From: Thraustochytrium sp. TN22
Lineage: Eukaryota; Sar; Bigyra; Thraustochytrida; Thraustochytriidae
Assembly: GCA_013306675.1 (NCBI GenBank)
Contig: JABLUY010000023.1
Span: 160,041 to 224,040 of the forward strand
Direction of reading: 5' to 3'
Length of the DNA: 64,000 bases
Below the pieces are notes generated by a model. That model did not search any database. It was given only the letters and a program-made list of their open reading frames with translations, and was not told the DNA's origin. Numbering within the stretch: the stretch's first letter is position 1; the number at the start of each line of letters is the position of its first letter. Of this stretch, positions 41,101 to 58,326 are shown in pieces. Position numbers and translations under genes: made by a program.

Positions 41101-41220
41101 ATTTCGGACACCCTTGTGGGTATCCTCATGCGCGCCAAGCGCGCCGGCAAGATCCACTACGATGGCGAGATGCTCTTTGAGATTGAGCACGACGATGTCC
41201 AAATCACAGCGCTCGAGTAG
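38140..41220 (+). CDS. PH domain / coiled-coil / Costars domain protein
   Basis: A 1026-residue protein from MAERGGGARG; MANWKRLDGQFDEY at 38338 is a possible alternative start. A pleckstrin-homology domain lies at about residues 185-285 (VMEGFLFKRATVSGRNWKRR, then FMVSDFATTFYLAAS and WMHTIQRVLQKL), with the usual basic beta1-beta2 loop for phosphoinositides. Acidic tracts follow (about 345-425). A long Glu/Arg/Ala coiled coil spans about 490-780. A basic Ser-rich stretch follows (780-850). The C-terminus (about 945-1026) matches the Costars domain of ABRA/ABRACL actin regulators: EMNRLLEIIKDIG, TFKELLDVYEDISDTLVGIL, KIHYDGEMLF and HDDVQITAL. I infer a membrane-to-actin linker. The upstream open frame (to 37762) is GGCGC low complexity and was excluded. 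Confidence 0.85.
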   Translation: MAERGGGARGAARGAAASARRDGAGVALAAATRETTATAAGATRVTGAPAGPAAAAAAAPTALDGFMANWKRLDGQFDEYARLRELRSLVAQGALSQEVYDQMHRYVLEKNLSKKGKKKLAQQKMARSRSQRAAPELPPRRKSLFGGGSRRTLAAAPPGSRVVHKGGEVLVEGDEQSALWGRKAVMEGFLFKRATVSGRNWKRRYVKLYYDRMDYFSAKTDKTPRGTIHLTKDYFVADSILRRIKNTRPHGFMVSDFATTFYLAASSPEAKVYWMHTIQRVLQKLKDQDAELDAPVRLDEPERTPSMRARDMQARLEAYRKAQPVTDIAKRVSRKTRGEEVDEEDAEEDEEEDDGAFAGPLARFSHVVDRDDDDDDALRAAVATGAISSAAALLGATDEDEDEDVDEDGEADDLHEHEHETEDDLDQQLEEFAKMQQMQRPPSGAEAMVPPAPHGGRLMSAGSARPRPRSLLLSMEREEKTRSLADAALSAHESARRSAQVHLGLDVMSYDQQEDLREEAAHAEATRLMADMENAAAMSEMDEVLETKDAIKRELRSATAADADEAEVQTLEEEYEATRRRLQELEEVMARTAAERAEAEDIARRNRDRIARANAANAIVLELAQVDEAILRAEQLAERAEEARLRAREAAAKVHVETMQETTAREEELRQAEEIARKAREEEEERARQERLIMQKLEETARKKVNERQREKIEEVAEQAAAARAEAEERRFEAELAATELANQQLDALAKAAAVERALEETQALINRSRHAQGLEEFAFARPRHSGESAVSVDEDLKPRAASKPKRSSLLRKLRPRSAASKSSAKASAKPAAAAAADSSKPPRSPAAAHASMAPGDDGPSEATSSFRSFFTAFTQAAVDGIEYVTGLQLGDQDAQDDDDDRNARGARADDYDSVYDEDEDDEDDDYDDDFDEQLRAVGEQERMEAASAWIEFEMNRLLEIIKDIGVPDEYGRPTTTFKELLDVYEDISDTLVGILMRAKRAGKIHYDGEMLFEIEHDDVQITALE

Positions 41221-41485: not shown

Positions 41486-43832
41486 TTAAACCGCCGCGGA
41501 TGCCATGTCGCGCACCTGCATCAGAGCTTCCGGCTGGAAAATCAAAATGGTGGCGAAGCGAACGCCAAAGATGGCCGACATGAGAAGGCCAAAGGCAGTG
41601 AGCGCCAGGTCGATCAGGCTCAGGGCGCTCACATCGAGCTCAAAGCCCGTAAAGGAGAACGAGTAGCAGTCCATGAGGCGGGCCGAGTCGCGCGCCTGAA
41701 ATTCGATCCACGGAATCTCAATGTACGGCGCGCCCGAGTAGAGCAGCAGGCTGTAGTTGGAGGCCGTGCTGAAGACGATGAGCGAGAAGGCCGTGCCGAA
41801 GACAACCAGGTCGCCCAGCGCATCGAAGAGCACCAGGCGTTTGAGCTGTTTGAGAAGATCCTTGAGCCGCTCCGCGGCTCGGGACGCGGCGCGCTGTGCG
41901 CGCTCTTCCAGGACCGACCGGGTGCTGGGCGCGGGCACATCAACCGCAAAGCCATAGGCCCTCGGCCCCGAATACTCCGGCTCCTTCTCTTCAACGCTTC
42001 GGAGCAGCTCCGGCTCGTCCGTGCCAAAGCCCGTTCTGATGACGCTCCGGCCCCTTTGCTCTTCCTTCTTGATCTTCTTCTTCTTCTTCAGCCGCGTGAA
42101 CGCTACTCCAGGCGCGCCGTACGCGAGAGAGTCCTCCGCCGGGGGTGCGGGGGGGCGACGCCGGTGGCATGCGCGAGACCGGCGGCACTGGCCTGGATGG
42201 CGGCGGTATCTCCTCAAAGCCTGCTGCGAAATCGTCTACCTCGTCCTCCTCATCGAGAAGATAGCTCACCTGTGGCCCTTCTTCTTCTTCTTCTTCTTCT
42301 TCTTCTTCTTCTTCTTCTTCTTCTTCTTCTTCCTTCTCCTCCGGCATCTCCTCCCCAGCACGCGCCTCGCGCTCCTCGTCCCATACCGACCGAACCTCTG
42401 CAAAGTCTTCGAGAATGTCCCAAAAGGGCTGCGGCAATTCACGCAGCAGGCTCAGGCGGTCCTCCAGGTCAGCTCGCAGCGCTGCCAGCTCCTCCGAACT
42501 CCTCGTAGTCCTTCTGGCTTCGTCCAGCGCCTCGCGGACGATGCGCAGGGAACGGCGCATGGCCGACATGCTCCCCGGCACAAAGAGCGCCCAGAGCAGG
42601 CCACTCCAGGACGACGGGTACAGGTTGGTGGGCTCGCGCGCGGGCAGCTGGCTCGTACCTTCGGTCGAGAACAGCCGTTGCGAGAGCTGTGTGGCCCTAT
42701 CGATGATCTCTGCGCCAGCTGCACGACGCGCCGCTACCAGGTCGTCGCGAGCCTGCGCGGACTCAAAGTTCTTGTCCGGCTCGGCGCGGATCTTTGCAAT
42801 CTCGGTGGCAACTGTCGTAGACATGCGGATGATGAAGGCCTCGGCATCGAAGGCACCTCTGTAGCTTTCTACCTTGGCCGTCAGCTCGCGCAGCTCGCGC
42901 AGCGACTCGCCGTCACCGCCCAATGTGCGGCGGAGTCGTGCCAGTGCGCGTGCATAGGCCACCACGGTTGGCAGACGCAGGAGCCAGTGCAGAGGAAAGG
43001 TGGCCACGTAGAGGCTTGCGAGGACGACGGCCATGACGACGACCAGAATGCCGCTCAGGACGGTCAGGGCTGCATGCAGCGCGGTGATGACCACGGCCAG
43101 CGGGATGTTGAGGATTAGCCACCGTAAGGTCCGCTCACGAAAGTAGTCGCCGACGCGAAGCGCATGAGAGACCACGAGCATGAGCAGAAGTGGCAGGAAC
43201 ACGAAGCAGAAGGCTGCCAACCCTGGCACCACATGCGTGAGACCACCGCCGAGGACAAGCACGAGCAGCGAAAAGTAGTGCTCCAGCGCCATCTCTGTGC
43301 CCTCGGTGCACTCGTCTTCCATCTCTTGACGTCGGTCTTTGAAGCGGCCAAAGAAGGCCTGGTCCGCGCCCAACAGGAGCTTCTCTTCACTTCGCCGGAG
43401 CCGCAGCAGGCGGTTCTTGAACCAAGCGCGCGCGAGCGCCATGAGCGTCGGGAAGAAGCGCTTGAACTTGAGCCGCACCCACAGCGTGAGGCAGGTCAGG
43501 AGCGCCGTCGAGTTCGAGAAGGCGTACACGAAGGCCTGATAGCACGACCAGGCGCCCTCGCACACGGGCGGCTCGTCCTCGGGCTGCACGGCCAGACGCG
43601 CCACGACGGGGGTGAGCGCGACGAGTGTAAGGATGGTGAAGGCCACATTCTCGCGTGTCGTCTTGCGCTCGCCAATGCTGCCCCCCTCCTGCTCGCGCAA
43701 GAAGACCAGCGCCAGCTCCACAGGTACCGTGAGCGCCGCGTACCACCACCACGGCTTGGGCACCACGCCGATGGCATCGCAGCACTCGCCGAAGCCGCCC
43801 GTGTACTCGAAGCACCACGCCTCGGTGGTCAT
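41486..43832 (-). CDS. Tandem membrane-protein family, copy A (frameshifted)
   Basis: The family starts TEAWCFEYTGGFGECC (here M-T-TEAW). It has six or so N-terminal membrane helices (about residues 27-280), a large soluble middle, an acidic tract, and two C-terminal helices around FDALGDLVVFGTAF and LSLIDLALTAFGLLMSA. The reading frame changes at a run of seven G (42149-42155, plus strand). One frame runs 43832-41991 and ends soon after the shift; the other, 42217-41486, supplies the C-terminal helices expected from copies B and C. One base fewer in the run would give about 781 residues. Either a sequencing error or a recent inactivating indel explains it. The Glu tract (about residues 499-517) is coded by GAA (CTT on the plus strand). 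I do not recognise the family or function. Confidence 0.75.
42278..42333. repeat. CTT trinucleotide tract coding poly-Glu in copy A
   Basis: About 18 CTT/TTC units, read as GAA on the minus strand. Copies B and C use CTC (GAG) instead at the matching place. Confidence 0.9.
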
Positions 43833-44785
43833 ATCCCTCAGGCTGCCGCTGCCGTGTCGTTGTCGCCGTGGCCGCCACCGCGCCGCGTACTGCTCTGCTC
43901 TGGGCGCGCACTCAGGCTCGCGCGCTCGCTCGATGCACGCGCTCGCTCACTGTCAATGCATGGTTTGCCATGGTTTGGTACTGCAGTGGTACCACTGTTC
44001 TACTCCCAGAGGTACCGGGTACCATACCACCGCCAGTGCAGTGGTACACCAGGTGACCAGGAGCGGGCACGGTAGTAGGTACTAGTACAGGCTCGGTCGC
44101 ACCGGTACCACCGCCACCACCAGTCTGCGGCCGCCGCGACTGGCACCAGCACCACCACTGCAGCACCACCAGCACCACCATGATACTCCTCCACCGCACC
44201 TTGTACCACCAGGTACCCACCGAGACACCACAACACGAACATGACATGAGCCAGGCGCAGCAGCCACACGTCTACTGCGAACAGAGGCCCTAATTCGTTG
44301 CGATCACGGCGGCGCAACAGCCCAGTCCTCCTCCACCAGGGGCCAACCAGCGCAGGACAGGACAGAACAAGGCAACCCTTTTAAAAACAAAAGACATGCA
44401 GTGTGACCTCGAGGTCGATACCTTCACAATTCAATCGCCATGGTCATCTTGGACAAGGCACCCAGCGCCAAGCTCCAACCGCCACAGGCTGGCACCCGAC
44501 GAGCGCCAACTGTCGAGCCAGCCATGTGTACCCACCTCGAACGATCGTTCCAGGCGGTTTCCACTTCGTGGGCTCTCACAGTCAACGACTTGCGGTTCTC
44601 CAACGTAGCTAGCTAGCTAGCTTTGCTATCCGGATCACCCAGCCTGCCTATCCTCCAGCATGCCGAACAAACGTCAACGAACCTCTGGCAGAATTTACTA
44701 TCGATGCGCGAACAACGTGACAATGGAGAGCCACAGGCTGAGGAGAGGCCATGTAAGGTCGAGGCTGGCGAATGGTTGCGTGCAA
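43833..44785. promoter_or_regulatory. Spacer upstream of copy A with GGTACC-rich cluster
   Basis: Just upstream of copy A the leader resembles those of copies C and D. From about 43975 to 44225 many GGTACC, GGTAC and TACCACC elements occur, with short inverted repeats. Copy B ends at 44786. No gene or relic is recognisable in the rest. Confidence 0.45.
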
Positions 44786-47278
44786 TCACACCGCTGCGGA
44801 CGCCAAATCGCGCACCTGTGTCAGGGCTTCTGGCTGCAGAATCAGAATGGCGGCGAAACGAACGCCAAAGACGGCCGACATGAGGAGACCAAAGGCTGTG
44901 AGCGCCAGATCGATCAGGCTGAGGGCGCTCACGTCGAGCTCAAAGCCCGTAAAGGAGAACGAGTAGCAGTCCATGAGGCGGGCCGAGTCGCGCGCCCGAA
45001 ACTCGATCCACGGGATCTCAATGTACGGCGCACCCGAGTACAACAGCAGGCTGTAGTTGGCGGCCGTGCTGAAGACAATAAGTGAGAAGGCCGTGCCGAA
45101 GACGACCAGGTCGCCCAGTGCGTCAAAGAGCACAAGGCGCTTAAGCTGCTTGAGCAGATCTTTCAGCCGCTCCACCGCCTTGGACACAGCGCGCTCCGCG
45201 CTCTTCTCCAGGTCTACCAGGCGTTGCTGCGAGGGGCTCTCCTGCAATGGCGGGAGCTGGTCGAGCCTGTCCACGAGATCAGCACTGAGGAGCAACTCAC
45301 GCTTGACCATCTGGTCTTGAAGGTCGCCCCCTACGGAGATATCCATGAAGCCTGCCGAGGAAAGATTCTGGCGCAGGCCGCCATCGACTTCTGCCTGCAA
45401 CGCACGACCTAGACCATCCAAGGCGTCACGGGCCGGCGGCGGACTCTCATCGAAGGCCGGGGTGAGAGTGGCTCTGTCCCCCTCCTCCGGGACCGCGGCC
45501 TTGCCGCCCTCCCTCTTGCGCGGCGCGGCGCCCTTGCGCCTCACTACCTCCTTCTTCGCTGCAGGCGGCGCTGCGCCTCCCGCGGGAGGAGGGGGGGCAG
45601 CCGCTGACGCCCCCGGACGAGGTGCAGCCCTTGACTCCGCCCGGCCGAAGCTGGTCGTAATTTTTTGGGCTGGCGGTGCCACCTCTTCAAAGTCTTCAAA
45701 GTCTTCATCTTCTTCTTCCAAGGCCTCCTCCACCAGGAAGTCCTCCTTCTCTGCCTCCTCCTCCTCCTCCTCCTCCTCCTCCTCCTCGGACTCCGGCATC
45801 TCTCCGGCACGCGCCTCGCGCTCTTTGTCCCACGTCCGGCGAAGCTCGTAAAACTCGTCGGAAATGTCCAGGTACGGCTGGGGCATAGCGCGCAGCATGT
45901 CGAGGCGCTCCTCCAAGTCGGCCCGCAGCGCCCGCAGCTCCTCCGAAGTCATCGTGCCCCTGGCCTCGTCCAGCGCCTCGCGAACGATTCGAAGGGACCG
46001 CCGAATGGCCGTCATGCTCCCCGGCAAAAAGAGCGCCCAGAGCAGAGCGCCCCAGGACGTCGGATACAGATTGGTGGGCGTCTGCGCGGGCAGTCGTCGC
46101 ATGTCTACGCTCGAGAACAACCGCCGCGTGAGCCGCATGGCCCTTGCGTTCATGTCGGCGCCGATCGCCTTGCGGGCGGCCACCAGGTCCTCGCGAGCCT
46201 GCGCGGACTCGAAGTTCTCGTCCGGCTCGGCGCGGATCGCCGCGACCTCGGCACCGATCACCTCCGTGACCGTCGCACCAAAGCGATCCATGAACGCCTC
46301 GGCATTGAAGATGTCCCGATATTGCTCCACGTCGGACACCAGCCTACGAAGCGACTTGCCGTCGCCGCCCAAGATGCGGCGGAGCCGCGTACGAGCGCGA
46401 ACGTAGGCCACAACAGTCGGCAGCCGAAGCAGCCAGTGCACAGGGAGGGTTGCCACATAGAGACCCGCAAGGACGACAGCCGCGACAACGACCAGGACGC
46501 CGTTCAGCACGGTCACGGCCGCGTGCACCGCGGTGATGAGCACGGCCAGCGGGATGTTGAGAATGAGCCACCGCAAGGTTCGCTCACGAAAGTAGTCGCC
46601 GACGCGGAGTGCGTGTGAGACCACAAGCACGACCAGCAGCGGCACGAACACGAAGCAAAAGGCAGCGAGCCCGGGCACCACGTGCGTGATGCCGCCACCC
46701 AGGACAAGCACAATCAGCGAGAAGTAGTGCTCAGTTGCCATCTTCGTGCCCTCTGTGCTCTTGTTTTCCATCTCCCGGCGCCGGTCCTTGAAGTGCCCGA
46801 AGAGGGCCCGCTCCGCGCTCGACGTCACCCCGTCCATGCTGTCGCTGAGCCGCAGCAGGCGGTTCTTGAACCAGGCGCGCGAGAGCGCCATGAGCGTCGG
46901 GAAGAAGCGCTTGAACTTGAGCCGCAACCACAGCGTGAGGCAGGTCAGGAGAGCCGTCGAGTTGGAGAAGGCGTACACGAAGGCCTGATAGCACGACCAG
47001 GCGCCCTCGCACACGGGCGGCTCGTCCTCGGGCTGCACGGCCAGGCGCGCCACGACGGGCGTAAGCGCGACCAGGGTGATGAGGGTGAAGGCCACATTCT
47101 CGCGCGCCGTCTTGCGCTCGCCGATGCTGCCGCCTTCCTGTTCGCGCATAAAGACCAGCGCCAGCTCCACGGGTACCGTGAGCGCCGCGTACCACCACCA
47201 CGGCTTGGGCACCACGCCGATGGCGTCGCAGCACTCGCCGAAGCCGCCTGCATACTCGAAGCACCAAGCCTCGGTCAT
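44786..47278 (-). CDS. Tandem membrane-protein family, copy B
   Basis: An 830-residue intact member, starting MTEAWCFEYAGGFGECC. Membrane helices are at about residues 27-44, 61-80, 96-118, 184-222 (two), 236-256 and 258-278; a conserved basic loop RLKFKRFFPTLMAL follows helix 3. The soluble middle includes a conserved NLYPTSWGALLWALFLPGSM stretch. A poly-Glu tract lies at about 497-510 (GAG codons). A Pro/Ala/Lys-rich linker longer than in A or C follows, then an amphipathic LKDLLKQLKRLVLFDALGD segment and two C-terminal helices (about 720-745, 785-812). The open frame continues upstream to 47605, but the paralogues fix the start. Six or more helices plus a large cytosolic or lumenal domain suggest a transporter-like or sensor scaffold; this is inference only. 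Confidence 0.85.
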   Translation of the reverse strand: MTEAWCFEYAGGFGECCDAIGVVPKPWWWYAALTVPVELALVFMREQEGGSIGERKTARENVAFTLITLVALTPVVARLAVQPEDEPPVCEGAWSCYQAFVYAFSNSTALLTCLTLWLRLKFKRFFPTLMALSRAWFKNRLLRLSDSMDGVTSSAERALFGHFKDRRREMENKSTEGTKMATEHYFSLIVLVLGGGITHVVPGLAAFCFVFVPLLVVLVVSHALRVGDYFRERTLRWLILNIPLAVLITAVHAAVTVLNGVLVVVAAVVLAGLYVATLPVHWLLRLPTVVAYVRARTRLRRILGGDGKSLRRLVSDVEQYRDIFNAEAFMDRFGATVTEVIGAEVAAIRAEPDENFESAQAREDLVAARKAIGADMNARAMRLTRRLFSSVDMRRLPAQTPTNLYPTSWGALLWALFLPGSMTAIRRSLRIVREALDEARGTMTSEELRALRADLEERLDMLRAMPQPYLDISDEFYELRRTWDKEREARAGEMPESEEEEEEEEEEEAEKEDFLVEEALEEEDEDFEDFEEVAPPAQKITTSFGRAESRAAPRPGASAAAPPPPAGGAAPPAAKKEVVRRKGAAPRKREGGKAAVPEEGDRATLTPAFDESPPPARDALDGLGRALQAEVDGGLRQNLSSAGFMDISVGGDLQDQMVKRELLLSADLVDRLDQLPPLQESPSQQRLVDLEKSAERAVSKAVERLKDLLKQLKRLVLFDALGDLVVFGTAFSLIVFSTAANYSLLLYSGAPYIEIPWIEFRARDSARLMDCYSFSFTGFELDVSALSLIDLALTAFGLLMSAVFGVRFAAILILQPEALTQVRDLASAAV
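45755..45787. repeat. CTC trinucleotide tract coding poly-Glu in copy B
   Basis: About 11 CTC units, read as GAG on the minus strand. Confidence 0.85.
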
Positions 47279-47865
47279 CCTTGTGCGCGGCCGTCGCGGC
47301 CGTCGCGGCCGTCGCCGCCTCGCGGCGGCTCGCAGTCGTCGCCGCTTCCGGCTCCGCTCGCCTCGCTGCTTGCCGTTTTGCCGCCCGCCGGGCCTTTGCG
47401 GCGCGCACGCGCGCTCTCGCTCGCTCCTTCGCTCCCTCGCTGCGGGTGCCTGCCTGCCTGCCAGTGCCTGCCTGCCTGGGCCTGCACGCGCGGCTTGTGG
47501 CATGACATGCGTTATGATGCGTACCTCGAGCGAGTGTGCTGCCGCGCAAGTGGATAAACTTACATCCATCATGATGGCCTGACAGTGAAACAAGCCCCTG
47601 CGCAACCAGAGACCATCTGGGAGCCTAACTTATCAACAACTGTAAGGCCTTATGCATTGTATGCAAGGTGTGCGCTACGGTACTACCACAACCCGGCGCT
47701 GGCCGCGCTGGCCGGCGCTGGCCGGCGGAGGGCGGGCCCGGCGGGGGCCAGGGCGGCGGCATCGAACTGCCGGCGTCACGGTGCATGGCATGTACATGCG
47801 CGTTACTGGAACGTTACATGCAGCACGATCAGCCACGCATCTTGTATGATCTCGGAGCGACGACT
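47279..47865. promoter_or_regulatory. Spacer between copies B and C
   Basis: TGCCAGTG occurs at 47459, 181 bp upstream of the B start, within CCTG repeats. The sequence directly upstream of B (CGGCCGTCGC repeats) is unlike the leaders of C and D. No gene or relic is seen. Confidence 0.45.
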
Positions 47866-50142
47866 TTACACCGCTGCGGACGCCAAGTCGCGCACCTGTG
47901 TCAGAGCCGCCGGCTGCAGGATCAGGATGGCGACGAAGCGAAGGCCAAAGACGGCCGACATGAGGAGGCCGAGGGCCGTGAGCGCCAAGTCGATCAGGCT
48001 GAGGGCGCTCACGTCGAGCTCAAAGCCCGTAAAGGAGAACGAGTAGCAGTCCATGAGTCGCGCCGAGTCGCGCGCCTGGAATTCGATCCACGGAATCTCA
48101 ATGAAAGGCGCGCCTGTATACAGCAGCAGACTGTAGTTGGCGGCCGTGCTGAAGGCAATGAGCGAGAAAGCCGTGCCGAAGACGACCAGATCGCCGAACG
48201 CGTCGAAGAGCACCAGGCGCTTGAGCTGCTTGAGCAGATCCTTGAGTCGCTCCACGGCCTTGGACGCAGCATGCTCCGCGCGCTCGTCCAGCTCCTCCAG
48301 GCCGCTCTGCGACCTCTTCTGCGATCTGTCCGTGAGGGCACTTCTGAAGAACGGCCGCCCCCCCGTGGCGCCGGAATCTCCATCGAAGAAGCCAGACGCG
48401 GACAGGTTCATCCGTAAGGCACTATCCATCTCTGCTGACAACCCCATGTGAAGGCGCGAAACTGGGTCAACCCCCGGCGGCGGGCGGTCCGCGACGGCCT
48501 GAGCGCGCGGGGCTCTCGCCTCCCTCTGGCGCGGCGCACCGCCCCTTTTCGACGACTGCATCATCCCGAACAAACCCGCTCTAAGTTCAAGCTCCTCCTC
48601 CTCCTCCTCCTCCTCCTCCTCCTCCTCCTCCTCCTCCTCGACCACCCTCTTTGCTGCCTCCTCAACGCGCGCCTGGCGCTCATTGTGCCACGCCGTCCGG
48701 GTGGGCCAGCTCAGGTCCTCGATGAGGTCCATGTACGGCTGCGGTAGGGCACGCAACATGCTGTAGCGCTCTTCCAGGTCGGCCCGCAATGCCGCGAGCT
48801 CGTCAAGACTCATCACGTCCCCGACCTCATTCAGCTCCTCGCGGATAGTGCGCAGTGACCGCCGCACATCCGCCATGTGACCCGGCACAAAGAGCGCCCG
48901 CAAGAGGTCGCGCCAGGACGTCGGGTACAGGTTGTCGCTTGTGCTCTCCGGCAGCCGGCTCAGGTCAATACTTGAGAACAACCGGTGCGTGAGCTGCCTG
49001 CCCTTGTCCACGGTCTCGGCGCGGGTTGCCTCGCGTGCGGCCACCAGGTCGTCGCGGGCCTGCGCAGACGGAAAGTTCTCGTTCGGCTCAGCGCGGATGG
49101 CTGCGATCTCCTCGTCGATGACTTGGTCGACGGCCGCCGTGAATTTGACCAGAAATGCCTCGGCGTTGAACGCCTCGCTGTACTCCTTCGTCCTGATCGC
49201 CAGGACGCGCAGCGACTTGCCATTCGCGCCCAGCTTGTGGCGTAACCGGACGCCTGACCGGGCGTATGCCACAACTGTCGGCAGCCGAAGCAGCCAGTGC
49301 ACGGGGAGGGTGGCCACATAGAAACTCGCGATCAGAACAGCCGCGCTCACAAGGAGGACGCCGTTCAGCACAGTTACAGCCGCGTGCACCACGGTGATGA
49401 GCACGGCCAATGGGATGTTGAGAACCAGCCATCGCAAGGTCCGCTCGTGAAAGTAGTCGCCGACGCGAAGCGCATGAGAGACCACAAGCATGAGCAGCAG
49501 CGGCACGAAAACAAATGAAAAGGCAGCCAGGCCCGGCACCACGTGCGTAAGTCCGCCGCCTAGCACCAATACCAGCAGTGAGAAGTAGTGCTCCGTCGCC
49601 ATCTTCGTGCCCTCTGTGCTCTTGTCTTCCATCTCTTGACGGTCGTCTCCGAAGTGGCCGAAGAGGGCCCGCTCCGCGCTCGACGTCACCCCGTCCATGC
49701 TGTCGTTGAGCCGCAGCAGACGGTTATTGAACCAAGCGCGCGAGAGCGCCATGAGCGTCGGGAAGAAGCGCTTGAACTTGAGCCGCACCCACAGCGTGAG
49801 GCAGGTCAGGAGTGCCGTCGAGTTCGCGAAGGCGTACACGAAGGCCTGATAGCACGACCAGGCGCCCTCGCACACGGGCGGCTCATCCTCGGGCTGCACG
49901 GCCAGGCGCGCCACGACGGGCGTGAGCGCGACGAGTGTAAGGATGGTAAAGGCCACATTCTCGCGTGCCGTCTTTCGCTCGCCGATGCTGCCCCCCTCTT
50001 GCTCGCGCAAGAAGACCAGCGCCAGCTCCACGGGTACCGTGAGCGCCGCGTACCACCACCACGGCTTGGGCACCACGCCGATGGCGTCGCAGCACTCGCC
50101 GAAGCCGCCCGTGTACTCGAAGCACCACGCCTCGGTGGTCAT
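47866..50142 (-). CDS. Tandem membrane-protein family, copy C
   Basis: A 758-residue intact member starting MTTEAWCFEYTGGFGECC. Its N-terminal 300 residues are nearly the same as in A and B (PWWWYAALTVPVELALVFL, then CEGAWSCYQAFVYAFANSTA). The middle differs from A and B in many positions but keeps NLYPTSWRDLLRALFVPGHM and the YMDLIEDL-type helix. A GAG-coded poly-Glu tract lies at about residues 500-516. The C-terminal block (FDAFGDLVVFGTAFSLIAFS onward) is conserved. The upstream frame to 50457 is Arg/Ser/Gln-rich and excluded. Orientation and spacing (587 bp to B) fit tandem duplication. Confidence 0.85.
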   Translation of the reverse strand: MTTEAWCFEYTGGFGECCDAIGVVPKPWWWYAALTVPVELALVFLREQEGGSIGERKTARENVAFTILTLVALTPVVARLAVQPEDEPPVCEGAWSCYQAFVYAFANSTALLTCLTLWVRLKFKRFFPTLMALSRAWFNNRLLRLNDSMDGVTSSAERALFGHFGDDRQEMEDKSTEGTKMATEHYFSLLVLVLGGGLTHVVPGLAAFSFVFVPLLLMLVVSHALRVGDYFHERTLRWLVLNIPLAVLITVVHAAVTVLNGVLLVSAAVLIASFYVATLPVHWLLRLPTVVAYARSGVRLRHKLGANGKSLRVLAIRTKEYSEAFNAEAFLVKFTAAVDQVIDEEIAAIRAEPNENFPSAQARDDLVAAREATRAETVDKGRQLTHRLFSSIDLSRLPESTSDNLYPTSWRDLLRALFVPGHMADVRRSLRTIREELNEVGDVMSLDELAALRADLEERYSMLRALPQPYMDLIEDLSWPTRTAWHNERQARVEEAAKRVVEEEEEEEEEEEEEEEELELRAGLFGMMQSSKRGGAPRQREARAPRAQAVADRPPPGVDPVSRLHMGLSAEMDSALRMNLSASGFFDGDSGATGGRPFFRSALTDRSQKRSQSGLEELDERAEHAASKAVERLKDLLKQLKRLVLFDAFGDLVVFGTAFSLIAFSTAANYSLLLYTGAPFIEIPWIEFQARDSARLMDCYSFSFTGFELDVSALSLIDLALTALGLLMSAVFGLRFVAILILQPAALTQVRDLASAAV
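48592..48639. repeat. CTC trinucleotide tract coding poly-Glu in copy C
   Basis: About 16 uninterrupted CTC units, read as GAG on the minus strand. Confidence 0.9.
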
Positions 50143-50714
50143 GTCCCTCGCTCGGGCTGTCGCTACCTCGTCGTGGCCGTGGCCGTGGCCCTGTGAACGT
50201 GATCGTGGCCGTGGCGGTCTTGCTGCTTTGCCGCGGGCCTGACACTCGCGCGCTCGCCTCTGGTCCGAGTCAGACTGGCACGCCTGGTCGCTCTCGCGCC
50301 GAGTCTCTCTCTCGCGCGCGCCGGGTCGCTCGCTCTCCAAAGCATTACTCGTGCCGTCTGAGTGGCACGCGCAGCTTGCGCTACGCAAAGTGCCAGTGCC
50401 TGGGCCGTGCGAGGGCCCGTGCCGGGCTGGCTGCTGTGTGTGCTCAGGCTGGCTCAAGTTGCGCGTCCACCAGTTCCACTTTGAACAACTTGGAAAAGCA
50501 CCCCCAAAAGGTCCCTGCTCAGGCTACCAGTAACGTCTGCTTGCTCAAGCACGGTGTGCCTTGGAGCACAACTTGATCCACCACCGCCACTGGCATAGGG
50601 TTCTTCGCCTGACACTGGCAGGGAAGGTACGGTGCTTGGACTGATCGAGAGCTAGTTCTGACTCGAAGGAGTGCCAGCGCTGGCCCGTGCCGTACATGCA
50701 TTCATGTCTCAGCC
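50143..50714. promoter_or_regulatory. Spacer upstream of copy C
   Basis: The first 110 bp (leader) closely matches the leader of copy D at 53686-53795. CACTGGCA/TGCCAGTG occurs at 50391, 50588 and 50613. A single diverged copy of the 120 bp repeat described at 54022-54264 lies at about 50541-50635. Confidence 0.5.
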
Positions 50715-51146
50715 TTACAGCGACCGATGAGAGTCCCAGTCAGCGTTCTGAAAGTCTTTCGCCAAACAAACTTCACACCTCAGCTTCGCGGACACCACTG
50801 GCGTCAGGGTCTCTGGCTGGATACAGAGGCAAAACGGCAACAAAGATGGACATCCAAAAGCCAAGCAAAGGTCCCGAGCGCCAGGTCGAAGGGCGGCGCC
50901 TACATCGAGCTCACACCCTAAGGCCATGAGCGCCCTCACATCGAGCCCAAATCCCGTGTAGGAGAACGAACCGCAGTCCATGAGGCGCTCTGGATTGCGC
51001 CCCAGAAACACGAGTCGCGGGATTTTCAGACTCGCGTGAAGTGCTTGTGGCGGCCGGGCTTTTTGAACAAAACCAATGAGCGGGAATGTCCAGCCGAAGA
51101 CGACCGATCCACCTAGCGTGCCGAAGAGCACCCTGGTCCCGGGCAC
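50715..51146 (-). pseudogene. Relic of family C-terminus, 3' of copy D
   Basis: A 143-codon open frame matches only the last part of the family: VLFGTLGGSVVFGWTFPLI aligns with VLFDALGDLVVFGTAFSLI; NPERLMDCGSFSYTGFGLDV aligns with DSARLMDCYSFSFTGFELDV; the IQPETLTPV segment aligns with LQPEALTQV. It resembles the A-C subfamily more than D or E. The N-terminal 85 percent is missing, so it is a decayed remnant. Confidence 0.75.
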
Positions 51147-51576
51147 CCGAGTTACTTCTCATGAGAATCCTGGAGTTGCTTCACGGATCTTGACATGGCA
51201 TGCTCAGCGAGACCGCTAGGCCGTGGTCGCCGTTGAGCTGAGACTTCTTCACCTCGTCGTGAAGGCACAAACTAGACCGCATCAAACCCCGTGACTCGTA
51301 CCGTAGGCCTAGTCCCACGCTTACACTCGCAGTCACTCTCATTGTTCGCTGTGTGTGGACTCGCGGTCACGAGCGGCACGTGCATTAGGCGCGACGCAAG
51401 TGCTTCTAGGCCTGTAGTTATTCTGGTGATGCGCGGCACGATCCTGACAATCGCTTCAACTGAGGCTCCCACGCCGCCCGTCATCACGCGCTCATGACGC
51501 CACGCGCCCTGGCGACACCGTGACCGAGCCACTTGCAACGTCAAAAAGAAGGACTCCGACGCCGCGGACTTGCCTT
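51147..51576. other. Spacer between relic and copy D
   Basis: This is closely matched by the spacer at 54803-55242, including the stretch around GTAGTTATTCTGGTGATGCG. No gene is seen. Confidence 0.5.
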
Positions 51577-53685
51577 TCAAACGAGGTCAAGCTGAAGTCG
51601 GCGGCCACCGTGTAGTGCCAGGAACCCAAGACGTACGACGAAGAGCCCTGAGGTGAAGAAGCCAGCAGCGACGATGGCAAGGTCCAGGAGGCCAAGCCAG
51701 CCGAGGTCCAGAGCATGGATGTCGAGCGTCGAGACGGAGGCGACGTAGCATGCGGCGAGGCGGGAGGAATCACGGGCACGCAGCTCAAGGAGAGGCACGT
51801 GAAGGTACGGCGCCCCGGAGAAGAGGAGCAGGCTGAAGTTGGCTGCCGTGCTGAAGGTCAGGAGCATGAAGGCGGTGCCAAAGACCACAGGGAAACCAAG
51901 CGCGTCGAAGAGGACCAGACGCTTGAGCTGCGCGAGGAGGCGCGCCGCCGCCACCTCACGCGTTTGGCCGATGGCGGACTCGGAAGGGAGGAGATTGATA
52001 TATCGAACGGAGTCAATCAAGCCACCGCCGCCCGAACCTTCTGAAAAGCCGAAGGTGGGCTGCACTTCAACCGCTGGCCGCGCCATTTCACTCAGATGCG
52101 CGTCAAGCCTGATCACCAGGGCCAGCCCGGCACTAGTTTCCCCGGTGTCCGGTTGCTGCAAGCCTGGAAGGAGCGCCTGGCGGAGACGGCGCGCCTCGTC
52201 CCATTCGGCCTGCCGCTTGTACATCTCGTCCACTAGCCCCTTGGGAAAGGTCCACAGCGTCTCCCGTTGCTCCATCAAGCGCCGTCTGCAGGCGTCGAGC
52301 ATGTGGGGACTTGTCGCAGCCTTGAGGTTTGCCTTGGCGTCTTTGAAAAAGCTCAGCGACATCAGCAGTGCCTCGTATCGTTGATCCGAGAGCACGGCGA
52401 GGAGCAGTGAGAGGCCGTCCGTCGGGTACGTGTCATCAAGACCATGGAGCGCCGAGGAGATGTAGCTGATGTTGTTGCAATCAGTTCTGGACATGTCCAA
52501 AAGGCCCCATCCCAGGTGACTCGAGATCCAATGCATCTGCCCAATGACGTTCTTGGCGACGCGAACGAGCTCCTTTCGCTCCTTTGGCGATGCAAAGGCG
52601 GCCTCTGTCTCCGCCTCTAAAGCGATGCACTCGGTCTCGACGATCTCAGCGACAGCTGCACTGAAGGCTTCCACCACCCTTTCAACAAGATTGTCTCTTT
52701 CCCAGATGTCGATTCTCTCTGAAACCTGAGCGGCTACTTTCAGGTCGCTCGAGTTGGGTCTGCACAGGAGCACCCAAGCTCTGTCCGCGAGCGCATACTC
52801 AATTGCATCGGGTAGACGATACCGCCAGCGCCTGGGGACCACCAGCATGGAGAGGAGAGCGAAGGCTACGATGCTCACCGCCGCGATGATGGTGGCCGTC
52901 GTGACGACCAGATGAGCAGCAACGATGACCGTCGCCACGGGCAAGCTGAGCACCAGGCCGCGAACCGTGCCGCGCTCGAAGATGCCCCGCCCCACGCACA
53001 GCGCATGACACACGAGCAGCACGAGCAGCGCGGGCGCGAACACAAACCCGTAGACCGCCAGTCCTGGCACCACATGCGAGAGACCGCCGCTGCCAGCAAG
53101 CACGAGCATGGCAAACCAGTGCTCCAGGGCCATGGCCGTGCCTTCTTTGCGCTTGAGCTCCATCTCGTCCGCCTGCTCCTTCGTCGCGAGCGAGCCATAC
53201 AACGCCTCCTCCGCCCGATTGACGCGGTCCTGGACAGGAAGCACTTGGACGCCGGCCCCGCACCGCATCCACGCACGGGCGAAGCCCCAGAGCGCCGGGA
53301 AGTGGCGCTTGAACTTGAGACGCGCCCAGAGCGCAAGGCAGGTCACCAGCGCGGTGGAATTCGCAAACGCGAACACGAAGGCCTGGTAGCACGTCCACGC
53401 GCCCTCGCACACGGGCGGCTGCGAGTCGCCCTCCGGCTGTGCGGCGAGGCGCGCCACTACTGGCACGAGCGCCACGAGGGTGATGACGGTGAAGACCGCG
53501 TTTTCTCGCGCCGTCTTGCGCTCGCCAACGCTACCGTTCTCCTGCTCGCCCAGATACACGAGCGCCAGCTCTATTGGGACGCTGAGTGCCACGTACCACC
53601 ACCACGGCTTCGGCACCACGCCCAGCGCCGAGCAGCACTCGCCGAAGCCGCCCGTGTACTCGAAGCACCACGCCTCGGTGGTCAT
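51577..53685 (-). CDS. Tandem membrane-protein family, copy D (short subfamily)
   Basis: A 702-residue member starting MTTEAWCFEYTGGFGECCSALG. The overall plan is that of A-C (N-terminal helix block to about residue 285, soluble middle, C-terminal helices), but the poly-Glu tract and Pro-rich linker are absent and helix sequences differ (PWWWYVALSVPIELALVYLG, ARLKFKRHFPALWGFARAW). The middle contains DTYPTDGLSLLLAVLSDQRY, the equivalent of the NLYPTSW stretch in A-C. The C-terminus ends in a Gly/Leu-rich helix and GGRRLQLDLV instead of the A-C ending. It shares nearly identical N- and C-terminal blocks with copy E. Function is unknown. Confidence 0.85.
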   Translation of the reverse strand: MTTEAWCFEYTGGFGECCSALGVVPKPWWWYVALSVPIELALVYLGEQENGSVGERKTARENAVFTVITLVALVPVVARLAAQPEGDSQPPVCEGAWTCYQAFVFAFANSTALVTCLALWARLKFKRHFPALWGFARAWMRCGAGVQVLPVQDRVNRAEEALYGSLATKEQADEMELKRKEGTAMALEHWFAMLVLAGSGGLSHVVPGLAVYGFVFAPALLVLLVCHALCVGRGIFERGTVRGLVLSLPVATVIVAAHLVVTTATIIAAVSIVAFALLSMLVVPRRWRYRLPDAIEYALADRAWVLLCRPNSSDLKVAAQVSERIDIWERDNLVERVVEAFSAAVAEIVETECIALEAETEAAFASPKERKELVRVAKNVIGQMHWISSHLGWGLLDMSRTDCNNISYISSALHGLDDTYPTDGLSLLLAVLSDQRYEALLMSLSFFKDAKANLKAATSPHMLDACRRRLMEQRETLWTFPKGLVDEMYKRQAEWDEARRLRQALLPGLQQPDTGETSAGLALVIRLDAHLSEMARPAVEVQPTFGFSEGSGGGGLIDSVRYINLLPSESAIGQTREVAAARLLAQLKRLVLFDALGFPVVFGTAFMLLTFSTAANFSLLLFSGAPYLHVPLLELRARDSSRLAACYVASVSTLDIHALDLGWLGLLDLAIVAAGFFTSGLFVVRLGFLALHGGRRLQLDLV

Positions 53686-54369
53686 GTCCCTCGCTCAGGC
53701 TGTCGCCGCCTCGTCGTCGTCGCCGTGGCTGTGGCCCTGTGAACGTGATCGTGGCCGTGGTGGTCTTGCTGCTTTGCCACGGGCCTGACACTCGCGCGCT
53801 CAGCTCGCCTGGCACGCTTGGTCGCTCTCGCGCCGAGTCTCTCTCTCGCGCGCGCTGATTCGTGAGTGGCACGCGGCGCGCGCAGCTTGCGCTACGCAAA
53901 GTGCCAGTGCCACTGCAGTGCTGCGAGCCTGTCCGAGGGCCCCGGGCCCCGGGCTGGCTGCTGTGTGTGCTGGTCAACTTGCGTCCACCACTGGCAGTAA
54001 AAAAGCTAACAACTCGTCTGCTTGCTCAAGCACGACGTGCCCTCGAGCTGACCGTGGCCACTGGGCAAATTGCCCAGCATAGGGTTGCCTGCCGTGGCGA
54101 TGACACTGGCAGGGAAGGTAAGGTGCGGTGCTCGTGCTGTTCGCATTGCTCAAGCGCGATGTGCCCTCGAGCTGACCGTGGCCACTTAGCAAATTGCCCA
54201 GCATAGGGTTGCCTGCCTTGGCGATGACACGGGCAGGGAAGGTACGGTGCTCGTGCTGTTCGCAGCTCATATCAAAGAGGAGTTCTGACTCGAAAGAAGT
54301 GTTGGCCCGTGCGGTATCTTATTACAGCGATGAGAGTCCGAGTCATCAACGTTGTGAAAGTCTTCTTCT
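53686..54369. promoter_or_regulatory. Spacer upstream of copy D
   Basis: It holds a leader of about 110 bp shared with copy C, TGCCAGTG or complement at 53902, 53989 and 54104, and a tandem duplication of a 120 bp unit (54022-54264). Confidence 0.5.
54022..54264. repeat. 120 bp direct tandem repeat, two copies
   Basis: Unit 1 is 54022-54145 and unit 2 is 54146-54264. Each starts TTGCTCAAGC and ends GTGCTGTTCGCA, with CATAGGGTTGCCTGCC and GGGCAAATTGCCCA-like cores (unit 2 has TAGCAAATTGCCCA). A diverged third copy lies at about 50541-50635. Confidence 0.88.
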
Positions 54370-54802
54370 TTTGCCAAACTAACTTGAACACCTGCGTCAG
54401 AGTCTCTGACTGGATACAGAGGCAAAACGGCGACAAAGATGGGCATCCAAAGCCGACCAAAGGCCGCGAGCGCCAGGTCGAAGGGGTGCTTAAATCGAGC
54501 TCAAAACCCAAGGTCGCGAGCGCCAGGTCGAAGGGCGCCTACATCGATCCAGCTCACACCCTAAGGCCCTGAGCGCCCTTACATCGAGCCCGAATCCCGT
54601 GTAGGAGAACGAATCACAGTCCATGAGGCGCTCTGGGTTGCGCGCCAAAACCACGAGCCGCCTGATTTCCAGACTCGCGTAAAGTGCTGATGGCTGTCGT
54701 GCTTTTTTGAAAAAAATAAAAATAAAAAACAATGAGCGGGAATGTCCAGCCGAAGACGACCGATTCACCTAGCGTGGCGAAGAGCACCCTGATCCCGGGC
54801 AC
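54370..54802 (-). pseudogene. Relic of family C-terminus, 3' of copy E
   Basis: This is a decayed counterpart of the relic at 50715-51146, now spread over three frames: VLFATLGESVVFGWTFPLI (54614-54802), NPERLMDCDSFSYTGFGLDV (about 54550-54640) and PFCLCIQSETLTQV (about 54380-54430). A short A-rich insertion (near 54712-54732) and a local duplication of a roughly 45 bp stretch containing GCGAGCGCCAGGTCGAAGGG (54469-54540) disrupt it. Confidence 0.7.
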
Positions 54803-55242
54803 CTGAGCTGCTTCTCGTGCGAATCCTGGAGTTGCTTCACGGATCTTGACGTGGCATGCTCAGCGAGACCGGCGGTCCGCTATAGGCCGTGGTTGCCGTT
54901 GGGCTGAGACTTCTTCACCTCGTCGTGAAGGCAAATCAGACCGCATCAAAGCCCCTGCACCGTGACTCGAACCGTAGTCCCGCGCTTACACTCGCACTCA
55001 CTCTCGTTCTTCGCTGTGTCTGGACTCGCGGGCACGAGCTGCATGTGCATTTGGCGCGACGCACGTGCTTCTTGACCTTAGCATGTAGTTATTCTGGTGA
55101 TGCGCAGCACAACCCTGACGTTTGCTTCAACTGAGGCTCCCGCGTGGCCCGTCATCACGCGCTCATGACGCCACGCGCTCACGACGCCACGCGCCCTGGC
55201 GGCACCGTGACCGAGCCACGTTCTACTTCGCGGACTTGCCTT
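54803..55242. other. Spacer between relic and copy E
   Basis: This is the duplicate of the spacer at 51147-51576. It contains a CTCATGACGCCACGCG/CTCACGACGCCACGCG local repeat at about 55160-55195. No gene is seen. Confidence 0.5.
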
Positions 55243-57345
55243 TCAAACGAGGTCAAGCTGAAGTCGGCGGCCACCGTGTAGTGCCAAGAACCCGAGACGC
55301 ACGACGAAGAGCCCGGAGGTGAAGAAGCCAGCAGCGACGATGGCAAGGTCCAGGAGGCCAAGCCAACCGAGGTCCAGAGCGTGGATGTCGAGCGTCGAGA
55401 CGGAGGCGACGTAGCATGCGGCGAGGCGGGAGGAATCACGGGCACGCAGCTCAAGGAGAGGCACGTGAAGGTACGGCGCCCCGGAGAAGAGGAGCAGGCT
55501 GAAGTTGGCTGCCATGCTGAAGGATAGGAGCATGAAGGCGGTGCCAAAGACCACAGGGAAACCAAGCGCGTCGAAGAGGACCAGACGCTTGAGCTGCGCG
55601 AGGAGGCGCGCCGCCGCCACCTCAGGCGTTTGACCGGTGGCGGACTCGGAAGGGAGGAGATTGATATATCGACCGTAGTCAATGATGTCACCGCCGCCCG
55701 AACCAAATACAAGGCGGGGGGCGGGCCTGTACTCAGCCGCTGACCGAGCCATATCACTCAGATGCGCGTCGAGCCTGATAACCAGGGCCAGCCCGGGACT
55801 AGTTTCCCCGGTGTCCAACTCCTGCGACCCTAAAAGGCGCGCTCGGCGGAGACGGCGCGCCTCATCCCATTCGGCCTGCAGCTTGTACATCTCGTCCACT
55901 GGCCCTCGGTGCAAGGTCCACAGGGTATCCCGTTGCTCCATCAAGCGCCTTCTGCAGTCGTCGAGGTCTATGAGCCTTCTCCTGGTCTCACGGTACGTCA
56001 TGGCTGCTTTGCATGACCTCAGCGACGTCCGCAGCGCCTCGTATCGTCGGTCCGAGAGCACTGCGAGCAGCAACGAGAGGCCATCCGTTGGGTACATCTC
56101 ATCGAAGCCATCAAATGCCCCGGCAGCATCCCAGATCTTACTGCAAACGGAATCGACTTCGTTCATGACAACCACTCCTAGTTGGTTCCTGAGCCGATTC
56201 ATCTTCCAAAGCACATTCTTGGTGACGCGAAGAAGCTCCTCCCGCTCCTTTGGCGATACAAAGGCGGCTTCTGGCTCCGCCAACAAAGCGTTGCACTCGG
56301 TCTCGACGATCTCCTCGACCGCTGGCATGAAGTCCTCCTTCAGTCTCCCGATGAGATTGTCATTCGTCCAGGCTTCGAGCCAGTGTGAAACCTGAGAGGC
56401 CACGTACCGATCGTCCGGGTTAGGTCTGTACATGAGAACCGCAGCTCTGTCCGCGAGCGCATACTCAATTGCATCGGGTAGACGATACCGCCAGCGCCTG
56501 GGGACCACCAGCATGGAGAGGAGAGCGAAGGCTACGATGCTCACCGCCGCGATGATGGTGGCCGTCGTGACGACCAGATGTGCAGCAACGATGACCGTCG
56601 CCACGGGCAAGCTGAGCACCAGCCCTCGAACCGTGCCGCGCTCGAAGATGCCCCGCCCCACGCGCAGCGCATGACACACGAGCAGCACGAGCAGCGCGGG
56701 CGCGAACACAAACCCGTAGACCGCCAGTCCTGGCACCACATGCGAGAGACCGCCGCTGCCAGCAAGCACGAGCATGGCAAACCAGTGCTCCAGGGCCATG
56801 GCCGTGCCTTCTTTGCGCGTGAGCTCCATCTCGTCCGCCTGCTCCTTCGTCGCGAGCGAGCCATACAACGCCTCCTCCGCCCGATTGACGCGGTCCTGGA
56901 CAGGAAGCACCTGGACGCCGGCCCCGCATCGCATCCACGCACGGGCGACGCCCCAGAGCGCCGGGAAGTGGCGCTTGAACTTGAGACGCGCCCAGAGCGC
57001 AAGGCAGGTCACCAGCGCAGTGGAATTCGCAAACGCGAAGACGAAGGCCTGGTAGCACGTCCACGCGCCCTCGCACACGGGCGGCTGCGAGTCGCCATCC
57101 GGCTGTGTGGCGAGGCGCGCCACTACTGGCACGAGCGCCACGAGGGTGATGACGGTGAAGACCGCGTTTTCTCGCGCCGTCTTGCGCTCGCCAACGCTAC
57201 CGTTCTCCTGCTCGCCCAGATACACGAGCGCCAGCTCTATTGGGACGCTGAGTGCCACGTACCACCACCACGGCTTCGGCACCACGCCCAGCGCCGAGCA
57301 GCACTCGCCGAAGCTTCCCGCCTCGCCATGCTCGAAGCAAACCAT
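55243..57345 (-). CDS. Tandem membrane-protein family, copy E (short subfamily)
   Basis: A 700-residue sister of copy D. From GFGECC-equivalent SFGECCSALGVVPKP onward the first 290 residues differ from D at only a few positions, and so do the last 120. Residues of about 300-560 are strongly diverged (for example DRAAVLMYRPNPDDRYVASQ against DRAWVLLCRPNSSDLKVAAQ) while keeping YPTDGLSLLLAVLSD. The extreme N-terminus is different (MVCFEHGEAGSFGECC), and the leader shared by C and D is missing, so the duplication ends inside the first 15 codons. A TATATAA on the minus strand about 160 bp upstream could serve as its new promoter. Confidence 0.85.
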   Translation of the reverse strand: MVCFEHGEAGSFGECCSALGVVPKPWWWYVALSVPIELALVYLGEQENGSVGERKTARENAVFTVITLVALVPVVARLATQPDGDSQPPVCEGAWTCYQAFVFAFANSTALVTCLALWARLKFKRHFPALWGVARAWMRCGAGVQVLPVQDRVNRAEEALYGSLATKEQADEMELTRKEGTAMALEHWFAMLVLAGSGGLSHVVPGLAVYGFVFAPALLVLLVCHALRVGRGIFERGTVRGLVLSLPVATVIVAAHLVVTTATIIAAVSIVAFALLSMLVVPRRWRYRLPDAIEYALADRAAVLMYRPNPDDRYVASQVSHWLEAWTNDNLIGRLKEDFMPAVEEIVETECNALLAEPEAAFVSPKEREELLRVTKNVLWKMNRLRNQLGVVVMNEVDSVCSKIWDAAGAFDGFDEMYPTDGLSLLLAVLSDRRYEALRTSLRSCKAAMTYRETRRRLIDLDDCRRRLMEQRDTLWTLHRGPVDEMYKLQAEWDEARRLRRARLLGSQELDTGETSPGLALVIRLDAHLSDMARSAAEYRPAPRLVFGSGGGDIIDYGRYINLLPSESATGQTPEVAAARLLAQLKRLVLFDALGFPVVFGTAFMLLSFSMAANFSLLLFSGAPYLHVPLLELRARDSSRLAACYVASVSTLDIHALDLGWLGLLDLAIVAAGFFTSGLFVVRLGFLALHGGRRLQLDLV

Positions 57346-57553: not shown

Positions 57554-57631
57554 GCAGTGATGACCGAGTGGTTAAGGTGCTACGTTAAGGCCGTAGTGCG
57601 CAAGCTCGGGGGTTCGAGTCCCCCTCACTGT
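57554..57631 (+). tRNA. tRNA-Leu (anticodon AAG)
   Basis: It folds as a class II tRNA of 78 nt: acceptor GCAGTGA/TCACTGT (6 Watson-Crick pairs plus one G-U), D arm ACC...GGT with GAGTGGTTAA loop, anticodon stem CTACG/CGTAG with loop TTAAGGC (anticodon AAG), an 11 nt extra arm, and T arm GGGGG-TTCGAGT-CCCCC. The internal B box GGTTCGAGTCC is perfect. A T-rich pol III terminator follows at 57634-57650. There is no intron. The variable arm is a little short for tRNA-Leu. Confidence 0.93.
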
Positions 57632-58326
57632 ATAATTTTTAATTTTTTTGCCCGAAAATCGGACCATTTTTGCAGCGCTGGCCAGCGGCGTGGCGTGGCG
57701 TGGCTGCGCCGCACGGCCGCCTCGACTCGGACTACGTGCCGAGACGAGACGATCATTCTTGTTGCGAGCTGCGCTGAATGTCCTCGCGACTTACTGCAAG
57801 TTGCAAGTTTCTGGTTTGTGTTTCTTCTGCTGAGTTTGCATCCTACAAGTTGTTCATGAACTTCATGGGTTTGCACGTACATGACACGAAAGACTCGCCA
57901 TGGTCGCTGGCTTGAAACGCTGAAGCCTGCCAATGTCATCAACATGGCTTTCAGGCTCCAATTTCCTCGCTTCAAGTTCAAGGTGACGTCGGTCTCTTCG
58001 CGTCTCTTCGCGTCGCGTCGCGTCGCGTCTCTTCGCGTCACGTCGCGTCGCGTCGCGCGCCGCAGCGCCGCAGCGCCGCGCTACTCTCTTTTGTCCACCA
58101 CCACTCGCAGGCAATGCGATTGCCCGGACCCGCAGCGTTGTTTGTTGCCAGTGCCGTGCTCACTGCTTGCTGGCTGACGAGCTGGGCCGAGTAGCGCATC
58201 GCAGCCTCGGCTGGGCTCGAAGCTCCCGCTCGGCATTGCGCAGGTCTGAAGCCGAGGCCTGCGTAGCGCAGGCCGGCACCGGCGCGGCGTGCGCGCGCGC
58301 AGAACGGCAACGAGAGCACGGGCACG
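57632..58326. promoter_or_regulatory. Spacer upstream of the GST gene
   Basis: It holds a GTCGC/TCTTCGCG degenerate tandem array at about 57992-58057, GCAGCGCC repeats just after, and TGCCAGTG at 58146, 181 bp before the GST start. No gene is seen. Confidence 0.45.

What the first reader, a model, noticed from the sequence alone, without database searches (positions are those of the whole stretch)
41486..57345. Five-copy head-to-tail array of an unrecognised polytopic membrane-protein family
Five paralogues in one orientation share a signature start (WCFE...FGECC), a six- to seven-helix N-terminal block, a soluble middle domain and a two-helix C-terminal block. I know no family with the N-terminal FGECC-x(7)-PKPWWWY signature. 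Tandem growth, two subfamilies, relics and one frameshifted copy indicate an actively evolving locus. Surface recognition, sensing or transport are all possible; none is shown by sequence.
Basis: partly seen in the sequence, partly recalled or inferred. Interest (0 to 1): 0.78.

Follow-up and report, generated by a model that had tools for sequence, protein, structure and literature searches.

The report
Tandem family of unmatched membrane proteins
A marine protist carries five side-by-side copies (one split between reading frames) and one distant copy of an unrecognised membrane protein whose membrane parts are kept alike while a soluble helical domain in the middle diverges, a pattern best explained by DNA exchange between the copies.

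Summary
Copies E, D, C, B and A lie head to tail on the minus strand at 57345-41486. B-E are single open frames of 830, 758, 702 and 700 codons; A is split between two frames. Degraded 3' relics follow D and E. A sixth, intact member lies on another contig. No significant family match was found in Pfam, NCBIfam, PDB sequences, viral contigs or prokaryote genomes; no eukaryote collection could be searched. PUFA-synthase frames and no light-harvesting match suggest a thraustochytrid. Hydropathy and charge suggest about nine helices with the variable middle domain in the cytosol. D and E are 0.93-1.00 identical in DNA windows of the membrane parts but 0.53-0.92 in the middle: four-fold silent sites differ 16/58 there, 13/276 in the flanks, and 49/373 bases in the co-duplicated relics. 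Selection on protein alone does not explain this; gene conversion or segment exchange does. The middle domain of D is predicted as a helical bundle without a clear structural match. Four histidines in TM4-TM6 are invariant in all six members, an inner and an outer pair. Function is not shown. My reading: a conserved membrane machine with a copy-specific cytosolic module, under concerted evolution.

The parts
55243..57345 (-). Copy E, 700 codons plus stop; D/E subfamily; no W in the start signature
51577..53685 (-). Copy D, 702 codons plus stop; D/E subfamily
47866..50142 (-). Copy C, 758 codons plus stop; A/B/C subfamily, poly-Glu run in linker
44786..47278 (-). Copy B, 830 codons plus stop; A/B/C subfamily
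41991..43832 (-). Copy A, N-terminal reading frame (613 codons plus stop)
41486..42235 (-). Copy A, stop-to-stop frame that carries its C-terminal membrane block (other frame than the N-terminal part)
50718..51158 (-). Relic R1 downstream of D: diverged A/B/C-type C-terminal block without the rest of a gene
54389..54865 (-). Relic R2 downstream of E, co-duplicated with R1 (49 of 373 aligned bases differ); stops in all three frames of the minus strand
52369..52773 (-). Best-fitting diverged tract of copy D relative to E (D residues 305-439)
   Evidence: four-fold differences 16/40 inside, 18/324 outside; 0 of 200 shuffles reach it
56035..56439 (-). Corresponding tract in copy E (about residues 303-437)
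52066..52788 (-). Middle domain of copy D (residues about 300-540), predicted helical bundle; 20 of 24 ten-residue blocks (301-540) have mean pLDDT 65 or more
45794..46381 (-). Middle domain of copy B (residues 300-495), helices in the same order, low confidence
53642..53987 (-). 5' flank and first codons of D that resemble copy C rather than E (junction of a mosaic)
   Evidence: 11 of 13 30-column windows at 0.83 or more identity to C; E against D upstream only 0.36-0.45

Best explanation
A family of polytopic membrane proteins, so far seen only in this genome (about seven helices, a cytosolic helical-bundle domain, a linker, two more helices; N-terminus outside, C-terminus inside by charge), that grew by tandem duplication and is held together by gene conversion. 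The membrane frame with its outer cysteines and intramembrane polar and histidine residues does the shared job, most likely transport, channel or sensor activity across the membrane. The cytosolic bundle is where copies differ and most likely sets copy-specific partners or regulation. Shown: copies, subfamilies, relics, sixth member, conserved frame, diverged middle tract with raised silent divergence in D/E. Inferred: topology, gene conversion as the agent, function of either part.
For: Topology: outer loops carry 1, 0, 0, 0 and 3 K/R, inner segments 3, 12, 2, 37 and 2 (helices placed by eye). Invariant residues: outer N-terminus 13/28, TM1-3 39/93, TM8-9 block 33/93, middle 12/262. D/E: dS 0.067, about 0 and 0.040 up to residue 300, 0.482 in the middle, 0.180 in the linker, 0.070 in the C-terminal block; four-fold sites 16/58 in the middle against 13/276 in the flanks, Fisher p 1.2e-6; relics 49/373, middle higher (p 0.009), flanks lower (p 0.0002); change-point 305-439, 0/200 shuffles. 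A/C four-fold differences 5/73 in codons 1-127 but 41/87 in 128-300. D has a C-like 5' end on an E-like body. dN/dS in the middle 0.42-0.61 within the two subfamilies against 0.09-0.17 in the membrane parts of A/B/C. Middle domain of D predicted as a bundle, blocks up to pLDDT 93.
Against: No expression, localisation or population data. The membrane parts of the AlphaFold model have pLDDT under 50 and draw TM6-TM7 as one helix; the hydropathy scan at 1.5 missed TM1 everywhere and TM3 in A, B and C, so helix count and with it the side of the middle domain are not certain. TM4-7 have only 18/95 invariant residues, TM7 none. In A/B/C the middle is not clearly raised in silent divergence over codons 128-300 (27/64 vs 34/100; 28/78 vs 36/95; 25/60 vs 41/87), so the cassette signature is seen in one pair only. 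D/E membrane parts have dN/dS 0.37 and 0.48 on very few changes, and the D/E linker 1.18. Within subfamilies the middle's dN/dS stays below 1. The silent-site run test is mixed: D/E p 0.088 for longest run, 0.021 for sum of squares; ten pairs, no correction.
Confidence: 0.5

Rival explanations
1. Ordinary paralogues with a loosely constrained cytosolic domain. Conversion runs wherever copies are similar; the middle has drifted, mismatches and indels now block conversion there, and it escapes. No diversifying selection and no special role of the middle.
For: Middle dN/dS 0.42-0.61 within subfamilies, below 1; poly-Glu microsatellites next to it in A, B and C; few invariant residues, 12/262; D/E changes fall alike on hydrophobic (44/112) and other (53/129) positions of D residues 300-540.
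Against: Middle four-fold divergence of D/E (16/58) exceeds the co-duplicated relics (49/373), p 0.009, which simple escape from conversion does not predict unless the relics are partly converted too; the bundle is predicted with fair confidence in D, so it does not look like disordered filler.
Confidence: 0.35
2. D and E are former alleles of one gene with long-lived variants of the middle domain, brought into tandem by unequal crossing-over; the middle is a self/non-self or matching module under balancing selection.
For: Middle more diverged than flanks and relics in silent sites; both D and E branches are long in the middle tree (0.142, 0.234) and short in the membrane tree (0.009, 0.016).
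Against: No allele or strain data; no second haplotype of the locus among the matches; a cytosolic position is unusual for a recognition domain.
Confidence: 0.1
3. Assembly artefact: collapsed or mis-joined repeats give false mosaics and the frame change in A.
For: Near-identical tandem repeats are prone to it; the window ends at a contig end; copy A's frame change lies in a linker rich in simple repeats.
Against: D and E differ at scattered sites in the conserved parts as well, and the intergenic relics differ; the family structure does not depend on it.
Confidence: 0.05

Closest known systems
Tandem multigene families under concerted evolution with conserved and variable segments (general kind; recalled, e.g. 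cnidarian allorecognition loci)
   Same: Head-to-tail copies, relics, mosaic 5' ends, homogenised conserved parts and a diverged segment
   Different: Here the variable segment is predicted to be cytosolic, in a polytopic protein, and the array has five copies; no population data
BAR / F-BAR domains (middle domain only)
Transmembrane di-haem b cytochromes (b561, ferric reductase/NOX, NarI; patterns recalled)
   Same: Two pairs of invariant histidines, one toward the inner and one toward the outer side
   Different: Spacings of 15, 23 and 31 residues over TM4, TM5 and TM6 fit none of the recalled patterns; no such family among the Pfam matches; haem not tested

Membership tests
Any Pfam-A or NCBIfam family | Score above the curated cut-off | tested here: not met
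   Pfam: all 6 members scanned (A by its N-terminal frame only), 9 families up to E 10, each in 1 member, best AAA_lid_9 E 0.019, 15.3 bits against a cut-off of 22.8. NCBIfam: 5 of 6 members scanned, best E 0.5.
Rhodopsin-like seven-helix receptors (PF00001) | Seven helices and 7tm_1 profile match | tested here: not met
   No 7tm match up to E 10; about nine predicted helices (uncertain); the genome's own PF00001 matches lie on contigs C92 and C133.
BAR domain superfamily (middle domain) | Pfam profile match | tested here: not met
   None among families up to E 10 for 6 members; HMMER's filters drop most matches above about 0.1.
BAR domain superfamily (middle domain) | Crescent-shaped dimer of long three-helix bundles | tested here: inconclusive
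Di-haem transmembrane cytochrome (works-like) | Two bis-histidine sites stacked across the membrane | tested here: inconclusive
   H189/H227 near the inner side, H204/H258 near the outer side by the assumed topology, invariant in 6 of 6; pairing in space not testable, membrane model confidence under 50.
Di-haem transmembrane cytochrome (works-like) | Haem bound, redox activity | not testable with these tools
   needs spectroscopy
Concerted tandem family with a variable segment | Silent divergence low in conserved parts and raised in the variable part | tested here: met
   For D/E: 13/276 vs 16/58, change-point 0/200 shuffles. Not for A/B/C, where only codons 1-127 are lowered.
Concerted tandem family with a variable segment | Variation between individuals | not testable with these tools
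   one genome held, 'no relatives here'

The most novel reading that the evidence does not exclude
A new kind of transmembrane electron carrier or metal site: four invariant histidines (D numbering H189, H204, H227, H258) in TM4-TM6, an inner and an outer pair, hold two haems or metals, with a cysteine-rich outer cap, and the variable cytosolic bundle docks different redox or regulatory partners in each copy. The genome would thus keep one membrane machine and swap its cytosolic adaptor by DNA exchange.
Probability: 0.1. Interest if true: 0.75.

Novelty: new variant of a known kind. Interest (0 to 1): 0.42.

Why it matters
Families with a constant and a variable part usually vary outside the cell (recalled). 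Here the variable part is predicted inside, between two conserved membrane blocks, in an unmatched protein of a probable thraustochytrid, a group used for omega-3 production. If resequencing shows the middle domain to be polymorphic, it would point to a new recognition or adaptor system; if the histidine pairs bind haem or metal, to a new membrane redox or transport protein. If neither holds, it is an ordinary orphan family under concerted evolution.

Tried and rejected
Sequence searches that gave no accepted relative: Pfam, NCBIfam (59), PDB sequences by one protein and by two profiles (8, 60, 87; the best profile hits, E 0.0026 to NONO and 0.0095 to ClpB, fall on helical or coiled-coil stretches of the middle and linker, and I read them as compositional; one search gave 0), viral contigs with two alignments (32: 31 pattern matches, 0 confirmed; 85: 0), genome contigs with two alignments (33: 0; 86: 0).

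Structure: AlphaFold of full D (mean pLDDT 47.7; membrane parts unusable; middle fair to good) and of the B middle domain alone (mean 56.1). The helices come in the same order in both, but the B model is weak, so this is only a hint. Foldseek: 0 of 410 and 0 of 98 matches at E<=0.001 (117, 133). VIA rows (105, 132) are designed bundles, axonemal proteins, BAR domains, tweety chains, trypanosome receptors, Dps and ferritins: generic. Trypanosome-receptor-like and BAR-like readings were therefore dropped as membership claims.

A match on contig C30 (E 0.0046) was dropped: its query range 389-562 runs into the poly-Glu linker and the matched stretch holds three stops. A weak match on C416 (E 0.16) was dropped too.

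Considered for copy A: a short intron instead of a frameshift. Inspected by eye only; the N-terminal frame stays similar to copy B beyond the candidate donor, which argues against it. Undecided without RNA.

Literature: searches were seen as listings with starts of abstracts only, no paper was opened; no listed title or abstract start names such a family (129: 0 papers; 130: 1 paper, on P-type ATPases). The 38.7 Mb, 57% GC figure for thraustochytrid CCAP_4062/3 comes from the abstract start in the listing (PMC5854782).

Full report
What is there. The window is the last 64 kb of contig C155 (G000:C155:160041-224040) of a 37.9-Mb genome in 453 contigs. Five related genes lie head to tail on the minus strand, in transcription order E (57345-55243), D (53685-51577), C (50142-47866), B (47278-44786), A (43832-41486). 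B to E are each one open frame (830, 758, 702, 700 codons); A changes frame once in its acidic linker. A diverged piece of an A/B/C-type C-terminal block follows E and another follows D. Searches of the genome with copies B and E and with the sixth member found the array, these relics and one more complete gene, on C442 (L019:3412-5871, minus strand, 819 codons; 35-38% identical), plus two matches that I dropped (the tool calls such counts lower bounds).

Organism. No chlorophyll-binding protein was found (0 matches; 1 of 14 control genomes, a cyanobacterium, rang). Two strong PfaD matches sit in open frames of 2083 and 1719 aa (two further matches are weak, and 3 of 14 control genomes, all bacteria, ring, 1 over the cut-off), which fits the two enoyl-reductase-bearing subunits of the thraustochytrid PUFA synthase (subunit layout recalled).

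Architecture. In copy D I placed helices by eye at 29-46, 62-82, 102-121, 189-206, 209-229, 241-261, 265-283, 599-622 and 664-691; lysine plus arginine counts then alternate so that the N-terminus is outside and the middle domain and C-terminus inside. The plain hydropathy scan at 1.5 missed TM1 in every copy and TM3 in A, B and C, and the low-confidence model draws TM6-TM7 as one helix, so nine is the best guess, not a result. Invariant residues (six members; A counted only in its N-terminal frame) are dense in the N-terminus (13/28), TM1-3 (39/93) and the TM8-9 block (33/93), thinner in TM4-7 (18/95; TM7 none) and sparse in the middle (12/262). Six of the seven invariant cysteines lie outside by this topology (7, 17, 18, 93, 99, 646; the last is also kept in A's C-terminal frame). 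Copy D has 13 histidines and copy B only 6, yet four are invariant in all six members: H189 and H204 on TM4, H227 on TM5, H258 on TM6. By depth they make an inner pair (189, 227) and an outer pair (204, 258). Other invariant polar residues inside helices include E39, N109, S110, T115 and N616. This suggests that the membrane part binds or moves something.

Middle domain. AlphaFold with five sequences gives useless membrane parts but a helical bundle for D residues about 310-540 (blocks up to pLDDT 93; weaker, 54-69, at 411-460). The B middle domain alone gives helices in the same order at low confidence. Structure searches give only generic helical bundles.

How it evolves. D and E come from duplication of a unit that includes the downstream relic: their alignment runs 57320-54225 against 53654-50610. 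In 60-column windows they are 0.95-1.00 identical from 57296 to about 56457, 0.53-0.92 until about 55617, 0.93-1.00 over the next six windows, and 0.75-0.95 in 13 of the 15 windows that follow, through intergenic and relic DNA to the window at 54440. Silent sites show the same: dS 0.067, about 0, 0.040, then 0.482, 0.180 (linker), 0.070; four-fold sites 13/276 in flanks, 16/58 in the middle, 5/30 in the linker; the relics, a rough neutral clock, differ at 49/373. A two-break scan puts the diverged tract at D residues 305-439; 0 of 200 shuffles reach its score. Protein differences follow: 13 in residues 1-284, 61 in 305-439, 13 in 545-702. Selection on protein alone does not raise silent divergence in one tract only, so the membrane parts have been homogenised, or the tract replaced, by recombination.

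Other signs of exchange: A and C differ at 5/73 four-fold sites in codons 1-127 and 41/87 in 128-300, with an abrupt drop from 0.98 to 0.65 in DNA identity; D carries a C-like 5' flank and first codons on an E-like body. The silent-site run test (longest run, sum of squares) gives A/C p 0.059 and 0.0014, B/C 0.018 and 0.012, D/E 0.088 and 0.021, B/E 0.139 and 0.039, and nothing under 0.05 in the other six of ten pairs, without correction. Against a general cassette rule: in A/B/C the middle is not clearly more diverged in four-fold sites than codons 128-300, only more in protein (dN/dS 0.42-0.43 against 0.09-0.16 in 183-300). Comparisons with the sixth member are near saturation (B/F middle dS 0.96, dN 1.05) and I did not use them.

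The subfamily split: D with E has support 100 in four of four segment trees; A, B, C together have 53, 77, 52 and 100.

What it most likely does. I commit to a membrane protein whose conserved frame performs one activity (transport, channel or sensing) and whose cytosolic bundle binds copy-specific partners; about 0.5 for this reading as a whole, of which the evolutionary part is much surer than the functional part. The plain rival, a loosely constrained domain that escaped conversion, is at 0.35. The boldest reading not excluded is a four-histidine redox or metal site; it is post hoc and rests on conservation and assumed depth only.

Novelty. The protein has no significant match in the libraries named; eukaryote proteomes were not available, so relatives in other protists are likely and untested. 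The kind of locus, a tandem family under concerted evolution, is known; the predicted inside position of the variable part makes it a variant.

Noticed in passing
window 57554-57632 (+): tRNA-Leu (AAG) gene directly upstream of copy E; E's 5' end and first codons differ from the other copies at this junction.
   Followed up: partly
window 54022-54264: Two tandem copies of a 124-bp unit (91% matches) between relic R2 and copy D.
   Followed up: no
window 37753-41217 (+): Open frame with a PH domain and a C-terminal Costars domain, next to copy A.
   Followed up: no
window 34931-37294 (-): 788-aa frame ending in an LmjF365940-type CDD/CDA-like deaminase domain, E 4e-58.
   Followed up: no
window 22447-24279 (-): Ankyrin repeats joined to a lysine methyltransferase (Methyltransf_16) domain in one frame.
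   Followed up: no
L019:3412-5871 (-): The dispersed sixth member lacks the poly-Glu linker and has an extra stretch between TM3 and TM4.
   Followed up: partly
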